This document shows positions 123-15,082 of a stretch of DNA of 17,973 bases, one piece after another (positions within the stretch are counted from its first letter, which is position 1; each line of letters begins with the position of its first letter). The notes under the pieces are model-generated. The model did not search any database. It saw only the letters and a list, made by a program, of their open reading frames with translations, and was not told where the DNA came from. Source of the stretch: Lachnospiraceae bacterium (lineage in GTDB: Bacteria; Bacillota; Clostridia; Lachnospirales; Lachnospiraceae); assembly GCA_017615375.1 (NCBI GenBank), contig JAGAAH010000147.1, positions 1 through 17,973 on the forward strand. The letters run 5' to 3'. Position numbers and translations under genes: made by a program.

Positions 123-1304
123 ATGGATGAATTAAGGAGTTTCTTAGAGGAGACGCTTAATACACAACTTAATAAGATCATTATAAGCAATGGTAAAACA
201 AAGGGCGGAGTGAACAAGATTCACATCCGCCCAATTCTGCTGAAAGAAAAAGTTCTTTTCCAGGCGGCATCCTATACCGAGAAACAGGTATTTCACGAGA
301 ATCTTACAAAAGAAGAGACAATAAACAAGATAATTGCCCTTATGGAAGAATATAAGCAATGTGAGATAGATCATGAGGATAAGATAATTACCTGTCTTAT
401 AAGCAAGAAGGGCAAAGTCACCATTAAGGCGAAGAACAATGTTCGTAAAGGGGAAGAAAAAGCGTCAAAGACGGAGCTTTTATCCCATAACAGAAGGAAA
501 AAATACTTGATACCGGAAGGAGTACCGGTACCGTTTCTTATCGATCTTGGCGTAATGACAGAAGACGGCAAGATACACGATAAGATGTACGATAAGTATA
601 GACAGATTAACAGATTCTTAGAATTTGTCGAAGATATACTTCCTGCCTTACCGAAGGACAGGGAAGTCACAATAATAGATTTTGGATGCGGAAAATCCTA
701 TCTTACCTTTGCAATGTACTATTATCTTAATAAGCTTAACGGCATAAATGTGCAGATGATAGGCCTTGATTTAAAGGAAGATGTAATAGATAAATGTAAT
801 AAACTGGCAGTTAAATACGGCTATGACAAGCTTAAATTCCTTGTCGGCGACATTAAGGATTATGAGGGCGTAGATAAGGTAGATATGGTTGTAACACTGC
901 ATGCTTGCGATACAGCTACGGATTATGCGCTTTACAAAGCAGTAACGTGGGATGCAAGCGTAATACTTTCGGTTCCTTGTTGTCAGCATGAGATGAATAA
1001 GCAGCTTAGCGGCACATATAAGGATACAGACCTTGCAGCTCTTATGTCATATGGTATAATAAGAGAGCGCGTGGCGGCGCTTTTTACGGATGCGGTCAGA
1101 GCAGAAGTATTAAGGGACTGCGGATTCGACGTACAGCTTCTTGAGTTTATCGATATGGAGCATACGCCGAAGAACATTCTTATCCGCGCGGTAAGAGAAA
1201 AGAAAAAGATAGAGATTAAGCCTAATAAGAAGACGCACCGTGATGCAATCGAGTATCTTAAGGTTACGCCTATGTTGCTTAAACTTCTCGATAAAGAAAG
1301 GTAA
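123..1304 (+). CDS. SAM-dependent methyltransferase, Methyltransf_32-like
   Basis: This 393-residue protein has a class I methyltransferase core in its second half. Motif I is DFGCGKSYLTF (D186, G188, G190), followed by GLDLKEDV as the SAM-ribose strand. HACDTATD (H260, D263, D267) and VPCCQHE (P285 to E290) are the signatures I associate with the Methyltransf_32 family, which includes eukaryotic METTL25- and RRNAD1-type proteins. A basic linker, HNRRKKYLIPEG near residue 122, separates an N-terminal domain of about 120 residues from the core and could touch nucleic acid. The substrate is not known from sequence; an RNA target is inference. The ATG at 123 is preceded by AAGGA at 112-116. The gene lies 11 bases after butyrate kinase and 12 bases before the next gene, consistent with one transcript. 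The protein is cytosolic, with no signal peptide or membrane segment. Confidence 0.85.
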   Translation: MDELRSFLEETLNTQLNKIIISNGKTKGGVNKIHIRPILLKEKVLFQAASYTEKQVFHENLTKEETINKIIALMEEYKQCEIDHEDKIITCLISKKGKVTIKAKNNVRKGEEKASKTELLSHNRRKKYLIPEGVPVPFLIDLGVMTEDGKIHDKMYDKYRQINRFLEFVEDILPALPKDREVTIIDFGCGKSYLTFAMYYYLNKLNGINVQMIGLDLKEDVIDKCNKLAVKYGYDKLKFLVGDIKDYEGVDKVDMVVTLHACDTATDYALYKAVTWDASVILSVPCCQHEMNKQLSGTYKDTDLAALMSYGIIRERVAALFTDAVRAEVLRDCGFDVQLLEFIDMEHTPKNILIRAVREKKKIEIKPNKKTHRDAIEYLKVTPMLLKLLDKER

Positions 1305-6885: not shown

Positions 6886-8379
6886 ATGAAGATTAATTAT
6901 AATATGTCAGCCTATACGGCTAATGCACGTCTATTACAGAACGAAGACCTTCTTACAAGATCACTTGAGAGGTTGTCTTCGGGTTACAGAATCAATCATG
7001 CTGCAGACGATCCTGCAGGCATGGCGATTTCCGCAAAAATGAAATCCCAGATTAAAGGTCTTGAACAGGCAAGTCGTAATTCTTCCGATGGTATATCTGT
7101 ATTACAGACTACGGAAGGTGCGTTAAATGAGGTTAATTCCATCATTCAGAGAATGAGAGAATTGGCAGTTCAGTCCGGAAACGACACCTATACACAGGAA
7201 GATCTTCAGGCGATGCAGGATGAAATCGTTGCATTGAAGGAAGAAATTGATAGAATTTCAAAAGATACGGAGTTTAATAAGCTTCGTGTACTTGATGGCT
7301 CTTTGAGCGCCGGAATTTATCCGAGTACGAGAGATATAACCCTTCCGGAAGCAAGTTCCACCATTAAGCCGGGTATCTATCACTTTGCTATAGATGCGGA
7401 TGCAGAACGCGCTATGTATATAGCCGATCCTTGTAGCGCTTTTACGGGAGATGAAGCCGGAACCATAAGCATTAACGGTTCTAAGGTTAAATTTACCGGT
7501 GAAGAGACAATAGTTGAAGCATATGAGAAATTAAGAGATGCTGCGGAAATCGGCGAAGTAACCGTTATGCCGGTTGACACGGGAGCAGCACTTGATTATA
7601 CAGAGAATGCAGAGACAAACGGTGTATCACCGGACACTAATCCTATAGCAGCAGGAACGAAATTCGGTTTCTTCTCCAAATTTACCGGAAGCTCTGAGAA
7701 GATCACTATAGAATGTGATAATCCGAATCTTATCGCAAAGCTTGGAATTACGCTTCCTGTTGAGGTAAAAGGTAAAGATGTTCAGGTAGCGATGATAAAT
7801 TATGATCCGTCAAAGCCACAGTTTTCACCGCTTGCAACCCTTTCAACAAAGGGAAATATGGTAAAAGTTACGGAAATGGATGGACGTTCCATAAGCTTTA
7901 AGGTAGAGGATGGAGCTTTTCACAGAGGAAATACTGTACCGGGAACAACCGATCCGGTACCGGTTTCGCTTAATGTAACAGATATCGGAAAGATGGTATT
8001 CCAGGTAGGTGCTAACGAGCATGAGACAATTGCTATAGATATTCCTGAGATTTCTACAAGATCGCTTTATATTGAAGATATCGACGTAACTACGATTAAC
8101 GGTACAGACAGAGCACTCGAGGCATTGGACAATGCGCTTGCAAAGGTTACGGCAGTAAGATCCGCAATCGGTGCGGTTCAGAACAGACTTGATTATGCGG
8201 TAGATAATCTTTCTGAGACAGACCTTGATATGTCATCAGCATTGTCGAGAATAGAAGACGTTGATATGGCAACGGAAATGTCGACATATACACAGATGAA
8301 CGTGCTTGTTCAGGCAGCAACATCGGTACTTGCACAGGCAAATGATATTCCTCAGCAGGTATTACAGCTTTTGCAGTAA
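6886..8379 (+). CDS. fliC: Flagellin
   Basis: A 497-residue filament subunit. The N-terminal D0/D1 region (1 to about 145) carries LERLSSGYRINHAADDPAGM, GISVLQTTEGALNE and MRELAVQSGNDTY. The C-terminal D1/D0 region (about 400-497) carries AVQNRLDYAVDNL and ends in the coiled segment STYTQMNVLVQAATSVLAQAN followed by VLQLLQ. Both ends are the parts that polymerise and that the export apparatus recognises. The middle, about 145-395, is a variable surface-exposed insertion, making the protein longer than the 304-residue Bacillus Hag. There is no cleavable signal, as expected for export through the flagellar channel. The ATG at 6886 has AAAGGAG (6871-6877) eight bases before it. Control probably combines a sigma-D-like promoter and a CsrA-type leader. 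fliS follows after 10 bases. Confidence 0.97.
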   Translation: MKINYNMSAYTANARLLQNEDLLTRSLERLSSGYRINHAADDPAGMAISAKMKSQIKGLEQASRNSSDGISVLQTTEGALNEVNSIIQRMRELAVQSGNDTYTQEDLQAMQDEIVALKEEIDRISKDTEFNKLRVLDGSLSAGIYPSTRDITLPEASSTIKPGIYHFAIDADAERAMYIADPCSAFTGDEAGTISINGSKVKFTGEETIVEAYEKLRDAAEIGEVTVMPVDTGAALDYTENAETNGVSPDTNPIAAGTKFGFFSKFTGSSEKITIECDNPNLIAKLGITLPVEVKGKDVQVAMINYDPSKPQFSPLATLSTKGNMVKVTEMDGRSISFKVEDGAFHRGNTVPGTTDPVPVSLNVTDIGKMVFQVGANEHETIAIDIPEISTRSLYIEDIDVTTINGTDRALEALDNALAKVTAVRSAIGAVQNRLDYAVDNLSETDLDMSSALSRIEDVDMATEMSTYTQMNVLVQAATSVLAQANDIPQQVLQLLQ

Positions 8380-12594: not shown

Positions 12595-12768
12595 ATGAAT
12601 TTTTTAAAGAATCTTAAGGCAGATGAGGAAGGAATCACAACGGTTGAGCTCATATTAATACTGGTTGTATTAATTGCGATTGTCCTTATATTTAAGGAAC
12701 AGCTTTTGTCGCTTGTTGATAATATCTTCGATACCATTACAAAAGGTGCGGGAGAAATCAGTGCATAA
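12595..12768 (+). CDS. flp: Flp-type major pilin (type IVb)
   Basis: A 57-residue prepilin. A short charged leader (MNFLKNLKADEEG) ends in G13, followed by ITTVELILILVVLIAIVLIF, a hydrophobic helix with glutamate at +5 of the mature form; this is the classic type IVb cleavage site and polymerisation residue. The mature pilin would be 44 residues. Glu is followed by Leu, where many Flp pilins have Tyr. AGGAGG at 12581-12586 sits eight bases before ATG 12595, the strongest ribosome binding site in the operon, as expected for a major subunit. The ATG at 12588 is rejected because that frame stops after nine codons. The gene overlaps the next start (GTG 12761) by eight bases. Confidence 0.92.
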   Translation: MNFLKNLKADEEGITTVELILILVVLIAIVLIFKEQLLSLVDNIFDTITKGAGEISA

Positions 12769-14212
12769 AAGAGGAAGAAAAAAGGGCGTAATAACCGTAT
12801 TTTCCGCTATAAGTTTTGCACTTACGGTATCTTTATTTCTGTCGCTGTTAGAAAGTGCGAGGATTCAGGGAATGAAATATTTCTACCCGGAATACGTAAA
12901 TCTTCAGGCAGATAATGTATTGGCGCATTATGACAGGGATATATACGAGAGGTTCGGACTTTTCGGAAGATGCGATACGGGTGCTCTTGAGAACACTTTA
13001 AGTGAGTATCTTAATCGGGATGAAGCACTTAATGAAAAGGATCTTCTTAAGGGTAAAAGCGCTACCGTTCGTGAGCTCAGAAAGAAGCTTATGACAGACG
13101 ATAGCGGACGAGCTTTTCAGCATTTGGCGGCATCTTATATGAAATCGATTTTGCCCGACGTATTTCCCGAAAAGGTTAAGGGACTTATGTCCAATTATGC
13201 GGATGTGGCGGAATATCTTGACGGAAGTAAGATAATGGAGCACATAGATGCTGCGATAGATGCAGTTTTAAAGGCGCTTTCCATTGCAAGAAGCAGACTT
13301 TATAAGACGGTAGTTGATGAAGATGGGAATGAAATTACTGTCGAAGATCCGGAAATGCGTGCAGTTATCGAGCAGTTGGAAAACAGCGAGATTCTTAAGT
13401 CAAAAGAAAGAATCAATAACTTTACTTTGCTTGATCTTCTGCCGAGCGGGATGAGTATATCGAAGGGAAGAAAGTTATACGGGGATCCGATTGATAAGCG
13501 CGAATTAAAGTCGGGGGATATGGAAGATGTAGAGACCGACAAGGCTGAGTATTGCCTTATGCTTCTATACGCGGCGGCTAATCTTAAGAGCTATCTCGAT
13601 CAATACATAAAACCCGAAGATGAGCATGAGATTCCGAACAGCAATGAGAATCTTATATATGAGCTTGAATATGTATGCTCCGGAAAAGAAACCGATGAAG
13701 AGAATCTTTCCAATACGGTTAAGAGAATATATATTATGCGCACGTCGGTACATTTTCTTGCAGACCTTATGGACCCTTCAAGAGTTGCAACCGCGGAAAG
13801 CATAGCTATAATGCTGGTCGGATTTACCGGCCTGCCGTTTCTTATCCCTTTGGTTAAGTACGGAATTATCGTTTGCTGGTCACTACTGGAGGCGATAAAC
13901 GATTGCAAGTTATTGCTTTCGGGGAAAAGAATACCTATTGTTCCTTACGTGAATATCGGGCTTATACAGATTAATTATACGGAGCATATACTATTATTGC
14001 TCATGCCCAAAGGGACAAAGAAGATAAGCTATAGAATAATGGATATGATTGAAGAATACTCTCGTAAGAAAATGGATAACATGGTTATTGCCTTAGCCGG
14101 AAAAGTTGATATAACGACCGATTTTAAAATGGCAAAGGCCGTACTTATGGTGCCGATACCGCAAGGCGGCGTAAATAGCAGTTACGATTTTTACAGCAAG
14201 TATTATAGATAG
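12761..14212 (+). CDS. DUF5702-like secreted Tad-locus protein
   Basis: A 483-residue protein with an N-terminal pilin-like hydrophobic segment (ITVFSAISFALTVSLFLSLLESAR, about 11-33) after a basic start, then a long exported domain. It resembles DUF5702 proteins that accompany tad genes in Lachnospiraceae, including the LLESARIQG start, a second hydrophobic stretch near 375-400 and the late ISYRIMDMIEEYSRKK helix. There is a Gly before VITVF, but no Glu at +5, so it may not be a true prepilin. The GTG at 12761 is chosen because GGGAG (12750-12754) lies six bases upstream. An in-frame ATG at 12674 would only read the flp gene in another frame. Its precise role, perhaps a TadG-like anchor or minor component, is inference. 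Confidence 0.75.
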   Translation: MHKRGRKKGVITVFSAISFALTVSLFLSLLESARIQGMKYFYPEYVNLQADNVLAHYDRDIYERFGLFGRCDTGALENTLSEYLNRDEALNEKDLLKGKSATVRELRKKLMTDDSGRAFQHLAASYMKSILPDVFPEKVKGLMSNYADVAEYLDGSKIMEHIDAAIDAVLKALSIARSRLYKTVVDEDGNEITVEDPEMRAVIEQLENSEILKSKERINNFTLLDLLPSGMSISKGRKLYGDPIDKRELKSGDMEDVETDKAEYCLMLLYAAANLKSYLDQYIKPEDEHEIPNSNENLIYELEYVCSGKETDEENLSNTVKRIYIMRTSVHFLADLMDPSRVATAESIAIMLVGFTGLPFLIPLVKYGIIVCWSLLEAINDCKLLLSGKRIPIVPYVNIGLIQINYTEHILLLLMPKGTKKISYRIMDMIEEYSRKKMDNMVIALAGKVDITTDFKMAKAVLMVPIPQGGVNSSYDFYSKYYR

Positions 14213-14218
14213 GAAGGA

Positions 14219-14372
14219 GGTTTGGTCCGGATGTTCCTCGGATTTCATAAGTTTCACTCTTACGGTAAATCTACCTGGATATTTTCACATAAACTCTCCC
14301 AAAGCATAATGAACACACAAAATAATAAAAAAAATGCCCATTTACACATCCGGGGAACACCCGGGCCAAGCC
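14219..14372 (+). repeat. Imperfect inverted repeat enclosing the TadE-like gene start
   Basis: The arms are 14219-14245 and 14346-14372, with 100 bases between them. Of 27 facing positions, 22 are Watson-Crick, 3 are G-U (14221/14370, 14226/14365, 14238/14353) and 2 are mismatches (14231/14360, 14244/14347). The left arm starts in the ribosome binding site GGAGG (14216-14220) and covers the start codon ATG 14231; the right arm lies inside the coding region. GGA occurs directly outside both ends (14216-14218 and 14373-14375), which could be a three-base target duplication or chance. The two readings are a small mobile element (MITE-like) or an RNA switch. Confidence 0.75.
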
Positions 14373-15082
14373 GGAAAAAAGCAGGTCTTACGGTTGAAGC
14401 ATCGGTATCCGTTATGATAACCGTGCTTGCACTTTTATCCGTATTGCTTGTGTTTGTAGCAATGAAGAAGCAGGTGGCTTTAACGAGAGTTATGTACGAG
14501 ACCTGTGAAGACGCAAAGATATATACGGGCGTAATGGATAGAGGCGCGGCGGCAGCAGCTGTAGTTTTGGACAGTAAGGCGCGGGCAGCGACCAAAGGAG
14601 TCGGGAACGCGCAGTTTATGGCTACTTTTAAGGACGGAGCACTTTATTATTCTGCGGGGTTTAAGCTAAAGGTACCTTTTTTTAAGCTTGCAACGGAAGG
14701 CATATATCTTAAAAAGACTTTGATAATCGAGTTGTATGGCGGATACAGCGAAGATGATGATGCGCGATATGTATATGTGACAAAGTACGGAACGGTATAT
14801 CATGAGTCACTTTCGTGCAGGCATTTAAATATAACCATATTATCGGTATCTATGGATGGTTTGGATACACGCCGCAACAAAAGCGGCGGAAAATATAAGC
14901 CTTGTGAATATTGCATAAGAGGAAAAGGTTCCGGAGTTGTATATATAACGCCGGAGGGAGACAGATATCACAGCAACCGTGATTGCAGAGGATTATTGCG
15001 AAATATAAGAAAGGTTAAATTGGCAGATGTTATTGAAACTCATGCACCATGCGCCGACTGCGGACATTTGGCAGATAATTGA
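14231..15082 (+). CDS. TadE-like pseudopilin with two C-terminal His/Cys modules
   Basis: A 283-residue protein. After an unusually long 52-residue leader comes the prepilin signature AG/LTVEASV with a hydrophobic helix (residues 53-78), typical of TadE-type minor pilins. The exported part ends in two similar modules: YVTKYGTVYHESLSCRHL with a later KPCEYC (H191, C196, C225, C228), and YITPEGDRYHSNRDCRGL with a later APCADC (H247, C252, C274, C277). H-x4-C...C-x2-C suggests zinc or another metal, similar to Ada-type metal-binding segments; that similarity is inference. ATG 14231 lies ten bases after GGAGG; TTG 14222 is too close to it. The gene start sits in an inverted repeat, and codons in the leader (CCC, GGG, CGG, CAA, CTC) are uncommon in the neighbouring genes. 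It overlaps the next gene by 56 bases. Confidence 0.78.
   Translation: MFLGFHKFHSYGKSTWIFSHKLSQSIMNTQNNKKNAHLHIRGTPGPSRKKAGLTVEASVSVMITVLALLSVLLVFVAMKKQVALTRVMYETCEDAKIYTGVMDRGAAAAAVVLDSKARAATKGVGNAQFMATFKDGALYYSAGFKLKVPFFKLATEGIYLKKTLIIELYGGYSEDDDARYVYVTKYGTVYHESLSCRHLNITILSVSMDGLDTRRNKSGGKYKPCEYCIRGKGSGVVYITPEGDRYHSNRDCRGLLRNIRKVKLADVIETHAPCADCGHLADN

What the first reader, a model, noticed from the sequence alone, without database searches (positions are those of the whole stretch)
14219..14372. Long inverted repeat hides the ribosome binding site and start codon of a pilus pseudopilin gene
The sequence shows 27 facing positions with only two mismatches and three G-U pairs. It starts in the Shine-Dalgarno GGAGG, covers ATG 14231 and closes 140 bases later inside the coding region. 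Chance pairing of this length is very unlikely. Either a small element with terminal inverted repeats inserted and kept the frame open, or the mRNA folds to block translation of the TadE-like protein, giving a switch on pilus assembly. The G-U pairs suit RNA pairing, while the possible GGA duplication suits insertion.
Basis: seen in the sequence. Interest (0 to 1): 0.72.

Follow-up and report, generated by a model that had tools for sequence, protein, structure and literature searches.

The report
mRNA hairpin at a pseudopilin start
A long hairpin in the messenger RNA, where one pilus gene ends and the next begins, has been kept by paired mutations in most sampled members of a family of gut and rumen bacteria although its letters keep changing, so it is very probably a control element, and I found no description of it.

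Summary
The inverted repeat is real (14219-14245 / 14346-14372, two mismatches, three G-U pairs) and is neither chance nor an insertion. At the same place, next to the stop of a DUF5702 gene and before the GS(L/M/I)TVEA codons of a TadE-like gene, 114 of 126 Lachnospiraceae genomes examined carry a long inverted repeat (median 28 pairs, loop about 100 nt); 63 of 69 in a partly overlapping named set. Eight homologues from three other families score 9-13, below the threshold. Arm sequences turn over between genera, yet each left arm fits its own right arm (96% of positions, 45% when swapped). Mismatches are G-U rather than A-C (393 to 79 in 172 distinct hairpins), so selection acts on the mRNA strand. 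A clade alignment shows 18 of 26 pairs changed on both sides. In 68 of 114 loci, as here, the start codon lies in the left arm; in 26 it is in the loop and in 13 after the hairpin, so start masking cannot be the only function. No Rfam match. Best reading: an undescribed cis-acting mRNA stem-loop limiting or timing the TadE-like gene; translation gate and RNA processing are not separated.

The parts
12674..14212 (+). upstream gene, DUF5702 protein; its stop TAG 14210-14212 lies 6 nt before the stem
   Evidence: Pfam DUF5702 E 4.5e-41; DUF5702 also in 10 of 10 upstream proteins scanned, of 14 prepared; stop read
14214..14220 (+). Shine-Dalgarno sequence AAGGAGG; last two bases are in the stem
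   Evidence: read directly; SD score 7 at spacing 10
14219..14245 (+). left arm of the stem, holds the start codon
   Evidence: pairing kept in relatives
14231..14233 (+). ATG start codon of the TadE-like gene, inside the left arm; its A faces a C in this genome, a U in genus-mates G002 and G003
14246..14345 (+). loop of about 100 nt, coding for the variable leader peptide
   Evidence: in the family set loops are A-rich and G-poor
14294..14300 (+). CTCTCCC, this genome's version of a pyrimidine-rich loop word (CTCTCC type) enriched in relatives
   Evidence: read directly; CTCTCC in 27 of 114 loops, 2.5 expected
14346..14372 (+). right arm of the stem, inside the coding region, ends 8 nt before the AGLTVEAS codons
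14231..15082 (+). TadE-like pseudopilin gene with a leader of 50 residues before AGLTVEAS and two Cys/His-rich stretches near the C-terminus
   Evidence: a profile of this family matches (E <= 0.001) in 384 of 397 genomes of the same family; conserved Cys and His; no Pfam hit at 1e-3

Best explanation
This is a cis-acting mRNA stem-loop at the junction of a DUF5702 gene and a TadE-like gene in the tad operon of Lachnospiraceae. Shown: position, conservation, covariation, RNA-strand selection. Inferred: function. In the majority form, and in this window, the left arm carries the end of the Shine-Dalgarno sequence and the start codon. Once RNA polymerase has made the ~100-nt loop and the right arm, the stem closes and hides the start. 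New ribosomes can then enter only from upstream (a ribosome ending the DUF5702 gene reaches the base of the stem) or before the right arm is made. The effect would be to keep the TadE-like minor pilin at a low level tied to its upstream partners. In the other forms the start is in the loop or beyond (I infer that it moved there), and the stem stays as a barrier to ribosomes running on from the upstream stop and/or as a double-stranded processing site between the two messages.
For: 114 of 126 loci score 15 or more against a control maximum of 14; 63 of 69 in a partly overlapping named set. Own arms pair at 95.7% over the inner 20 positions (n=175; arms were chosen for pairing, so the controls matter), swapped arms at 44.7%, slid by 1-3 nt at 46-52%. 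G-U 393, A-C 79 in 172 distinct hairpins; 136 hairpins have more G-U, 5 more A-C, 31 equal; chance repeats give 233:172. Alignment of 18 loci: 97.6% of cells paired, 18 of 26 pairs with both-side changes, 0 of 500 shuffles reaching four of the five measures and 20 of 500 the fifth; RNAalifold gives the same 26-pair stem. Start in left arm 68 of 114, masked there in computed folds. Upstream stop median 7 nt before the stem, n=112.
Against: In 39 of 114 loci the best start is in the loop or downstream and is not masked, so masking alone does not explain retention. Stems of 22-38 pairs are longer than masking should need (my judgement). Five of 126 in-family loci (L010, L023, L024, L026, L069) show no such stem and two more (L018, L028) are unclear, so it is dispensable. 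No expression, probing or RNA-seq data were available. Structure directly after an upstream stop can lower, not raise, coupling (review PMC12548453, passages seen).
Confidence: 0.55

Rival explanations
1. Intercistronic RNA processing and stability element: the 22-38 bp stem is cut by a double-strand or structure-dependent endonuclease (RNase III or RNase Y type) or protects message ends, so that DUF5702 and TadE-like messages have different lifetimes.
For: Present whether the start is in the arm, the loop or beyond. Stem >=20 bp in 175 of 177. Sits at the 3' side of the upstream gene. Selective RNA processing with intercistronic stem-loops sets subunit ratios in Clostridium cellulolyticum (PMC4423207 passages; PMC10311766 abstract and section 12), and RNase III cuts a long 5' hairpin of cspA in Staphylococcus aureus (PMC3386247 passages).
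Against: In the majority class (68 of 114) the stem lies across the start of the reading frame, so a cut there would damage the downstream message; the loop is far larger than in stability stem-loops that I recall. No cleavage data.
Confidence: 0.33
2. DNA-level element: invertible segment with recombinase sites, or a small insertion with terminal inverted repeats.
For: Near-perfect inverted repeats with a short interior; arms differ between genera.
Against: Mismatches are G-U rather than A-C, which a process acting on double-stranded DNA should not give. Loop words are mainly in one orientation: CTCTCC in 38 of 177 loops against GGAGAG in 1; GAAAGGAG 31 against CTCCTTTC 4. One match only in the own, incomplete genome.
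Confidence: 0.02
3. By-product of coding: the leader peptide is conserved and the arms pair only because of it.
For: Some leaders share S-L-(Q/R/P)-(A/V) in the loop and R-(A/V)-S in the right arm.
Against: Pairing is kept where the hairpin lies before the called TadE start (13 of 114) and where the arm ATG is lost with a compensating change opposite (L078, L107, L120; columns 24/174 G-C 12, G-U 3, A-U 3).
Confidence: 0.02
4. Transcription attenuator or intrinsic terminator between the two genes.
For: Strong stem in an operon.
Against: Mean T fraction in the 10 nt after the right arm is 0.17, and 1 of 177 loci has 60% T or more; no terminator-like site in 13900-14700.
Confidence: 0.03

Closest known systems
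Start-masking structures in translationally coupled gene pairs (MS2 coat-lysis, f1 VII-IX, rpmI-rplT; review PMC12548453, passages seen)
   Same: Structure around or near the downstream start, next to an upstream stop; in 68 of 114 loci the start is masked in computed folds
   Different: Here the stem is 22-38 near-perfect pairs closing a loop of about 100 nt, kept over most of a bacterial family with sequence turnover, and kept even where the start is outside the stem; coupling not measured
Selective RNA processing and stabilisation stem-loops of Clostridium operons (PMC4423207 passages; PMC10311766 abstract and section 12)
   Same: Intercistronic stem-loop in a multi-subunit operon of Clostridia
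   Different: Those reported in the passages lie in intergenic space with folding energies of -6.6 to -31.8 kcal/mol; this one in most loci overlaps the downstream frame and is stronger (median duplex -44.6 kcal/mol; energies computed differently); cleavage not tested
RNase III-cut long hairpin of the cspA leader in S. aureus (PMC3386247 passages)
   Same: Long mRNA stem near a start site
   Different: The cspA stem is at the 5' end of a leader; no cleavage evidence here

Membership tests
Start-masking translational-coupling structure | RBS or start of the downstream gene is in the stem | tested here: inconclusive
   68 of 114 in the left arm (window included), 26 in loop, 13 after, 4 upstream, 2 in right arm, 1 none; masked in folds in the left-arm class and at the two right-arm starts, not in the others
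Start-masking translational-coupling structure | upstream stop within ribosome reach of the stem | tested here: met
   window 6 nt; median 7 nt before the stem, quartiles 17 and 3 nt before, 5% at 56 nt before, 112 of 114 loci with a stop found: met in most loci
Start-masking translational-coupling structure | downstream translation depends on upstream translation | not testable with these tools
   needs reporter assay
SRPS intercistronic stem-loop | stem-loop between genes of one operon | tested here: met
   DUF5702 / TadE-like junction, though it overlaps the downstream frame in most loci
SRPS intercistronic stem-loop | processed ends and unequal transcript levels | not testable with these tools
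   no transcript data
Invertible DNA element | interior found in both orientations | tested here: not met
   loop words mainly in one orientation; G000, G002 and G003 leaders read the same way; reads of one strain were not available
MITE or other terminal-repeat insertion | several copies with the same ends in a genome | tested here: not met
   one match in the own genome, 62% complete
Any Rfam 15 family | match at gathering score | tested here: not met
   none in the window or in 14 related loci
Intrinsic terminator | U-tract after the stem | tested here: not met
   1 of 177 loci with 60% T or more in the next 10 nt

The most novel reading that the evidence does not exclude
A previously undescribed class of coding-embedded cis-regulatory RNA, possibly ancestral to Lachnospiraceae tad operons (no tree was made): a long duplex with a conserved core (GAUGYCCUU / AAGGRCAUC) and loop motifs, recognised as double-stranded RNA by a ribonuclease or RNA-binding protein, that times or meters synthesis of a minor pilin; its presence where the start codon lies outside the stem suggests that the duplex itself is the functional part.
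Probability: 0.45. Interest if true: 0.8.

Novelty: new variant of a known kind. Interest (0 to 1): 0.72.

Why it matters
To my knowledge (recalled) few mRNA structures inside coding sequence are known to be kept over most of a bacterial family with pairing conserved and sequence lost. It gives a natural series of 172 distinct variants, so the role of long duplexes at gene junctions (masking, coupling, RNase III, RNase Y) becomes directly testable. The TadE-like gene has a match in 384 of 397 genomes of the family, yet the library held one paper with TadE, Lachnospiraceae and pilus together and none with the term DUF5702.

Tried and rejected
Rejected: chance; insertion or inverton; terminator; pure coding by-product. 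Tried without result: Rfam; the repeat finder, which missed the repeat. My first alignment of the three nearest loci and part used minus-strand loci unreversed; corrected. I first took the loop motif for a pure RNA motif because it occurs in all three reading frames; the refined profile shows a frame bias (70, 39 and 29 of 138 sites), in the commonest frame often S-L-(Q/R/P)-(A/V), so RNA or peptide level is open; weak sites in that list may be noise.

Sampling. The 126 loci are not a random sample: one locus per genome, 30 (the own genome, six genus-mates, 23 others) and the best-scoring rows in order (110 loci, of which 14 were dropped as duplicates of the 30). So 120 of the 384 matching genomes plus six genus-mates were examined. 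In one search, 80 records were fetched; 5 had no anchor, and 6 (the genus-mates again) were left out of the 69. Four of the remaining hairpins are identical to ones in the first set and one repeats within the set; some rows come from one isolate or near species. The 172 hairpins are related by descent, so counts are not independent events. Rows L144-L162, L165 and L166 (same family) were not added to any count; most have a stem, L152 has none, L146 scores 14, L158 had no anchor. The 18 loci were picked by me partly because their loops carry AAAGGAG, so its invariance there is partly by choice. Start calls rest on a simple SD score; some rows have two plausible starts. The core register was set by the core word itself, which inflates its frequencies.

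Full report
Check. The upstream DUF5702 gene stops at 14212, the Shine-Dalgarno AAGGAGG is 14214-14220, the stem starts at 14219, and ATG 14231 is in the left arm. The right arm ends 8 nt before the codons AGLTVEAS, the usual start of a TadE-like pseudopilin after its leader is removed (recalled). The window also holds T2SSE, T2SSF and prepilin-peptidase genes, hence 'tad operon'.

Nearest relatives. In genus-mates G002 and G003 the same arms are kept with better pairing. In G004 the same place holds a different, perfect 22-bp repeat, and in G005 a perfect 23-bp repeat that lies before the called TadE start. In G001 and G006 (L007, L008) it is weaker (scores 14 and 12).

Family scale. A profile of the protein matches in 384 of 397 genomes of the family. 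In 126 genomes I searched -400 to +30 of the GSxTVEA codons with a finder that treats G-U, A-C and transversions alike: 114 score 15 or more (median of all 21), against median 9 and maximum 14 (7 of 126 at 13 or more) in windows further upstream, and 40 of 1260 shuffles at 13 or more, maximum 17. In the named set 63 of 69 scored 15 or more. Eight homologues from three other families of the order (L163, L164, L167-L172) scored 9-13; the best at about the right place is L172 with 13. Among the 12 in-family loci under 15, L007, L008, L064, L065 and L091 still show a recognisable weaker stem; L010, L023, L024, L026 and L069 show none, mostly with a shorter leader; L018 and L028 are unclear (my reading of the rows). 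A second TadE-like gene in the own assembly has its own 25-bp stem with a loop of 59 and other outer letters.

RNA, not DNA. Own arms pair at 95.7% over the inner 20 positions, swapped arms at 44.7% (n=175). The arms were chosen for pairing, so the excess over shuffled windows and the next two tests carry the weight. G-U exceeds A-C 393 to 79 in 172 distinct hairpins, and in 136 hairpins against 5, 31 equal; chance repeats give 233 to 172. Since a G-T mismatch on one strand is A-C on the other, this asymmetry marks the mRNA strand as the one under selection. An alignment of 18 related loci, picked by me from those with AAAGGAG in the loop, gives 26 pairs: 6 invariant, 2 varying on one side, 18 with changes on both sides, 97.6% of cells paired; 0 of 500 shuffles reach four of the five measures and 20 of 500 the fifth, and RNAalifold returns the same stem. 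At one pair the G of the arm ATG is A in three sequences with U opposite, and G-U in three others.

Anatomy. Stem 22-38 pairs (5-95%), median 28; loop 57-160 nt, median 102; loop 41% A, 14.5% G. Duplex median -44.6 kcal/mol. Commonest letters of the left arm: GGAGGTG, then variable, then GATGYCCTTT (register set by the core word). Start in left arm 68, loop 26, after 13, upstream 4, right arm 2, none 1. Computed unpaired probability of the start is 0.04 in the left-arm class (0.46 with the right arm scrambled) and 0.42 and 0.44 in the loop and downstream classes. Upstream proteins were DUF5702 in 10 of 10 scanned, and in the window.

Loop motifs. CTCTC occurs in 46 of 114 loops (11.4 expected). 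In the 18 picked loci GAAAGGAG is followed by GATTCG-like letters, also where no ATG follows at the usual distance. Both words occur mainly in one orientation. The CTCTCC motif has a frame bias, so it may act as RNA or as peptide.

Background. In 800 kb sampled from two other complete genomes of the family, 18 inverted repeats of score 16 or more with loops of 40-250 were found, two of them the TadE hairpins themselves, so such stems are rare and not a general feature of gene junctions there.

Mechanism. Steps shown: conserved place, pairing, strand. Steps inferred: closing of the stem after the right arm is made, masking in the majority form, barrier or processing role in the others. The published classes nearest to it are structure-masked coupled genes (PMC12548453, passages) and processing stem-loops of Clostridium (PMC4423207 passages; PMC10311766 abstract and section 12); neither could be tested as to function. 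PMC8040213 (candidate structured RNAs in human microbiomes) does not hold the words pilus, TadE or Lachnospir in its main text; its supplements were not read, so an unnamed entry there is possible. Ten literature searches listed no title or abstract start describing this element; most lists were capped, and I opened five papers, in part only.

Noticed in passing
L260 2945-3197 and 3391-3700; L270 17712-17956; L271 6919-7072 (genome G115): A dispersed family of nested long hairpins (inner loop about 80, outer about 180), with similar inner ends; not linked to the TadE gene.
   Followed up: no
L293 about 830-938, minus strand (G000:C37): A second TadE-like gene in the own assembly with its own 25-bp start hairpin; could be a paralogue or a contaminating contig.
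   Followed up: partly
loops of L127, L107, L120, L133, L054 and relatives (alignment A4): GAAAGGAG-N3-GATTCG kept in the loop also where no start codon follows at the usual distance; AGAAAGGAG looks like a full complement of the 16S 3' tail (recalled).
   Followed up: partly
L014 and L040, hairpin region: Where the called TadE start lies after the hairpin, a separate ORF of 45 codons with a similar beginning (MD.DIRSY) runs across it in both.
   Followed up: partly
window 14231-14380 and leaders: Many TadE-like proteins of this family have long leaders (often 40-60 residues, unusual from memory) before the GSxTVEA site, many with S-L-(Q/R/P)-(A/V) and R-(A/V)-S.
   Followed up: partly
window 6886-8379: ORF that looks like a flagellin (by eye, not tested) a few kb upstream of the tad genes.
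   Followed up: no
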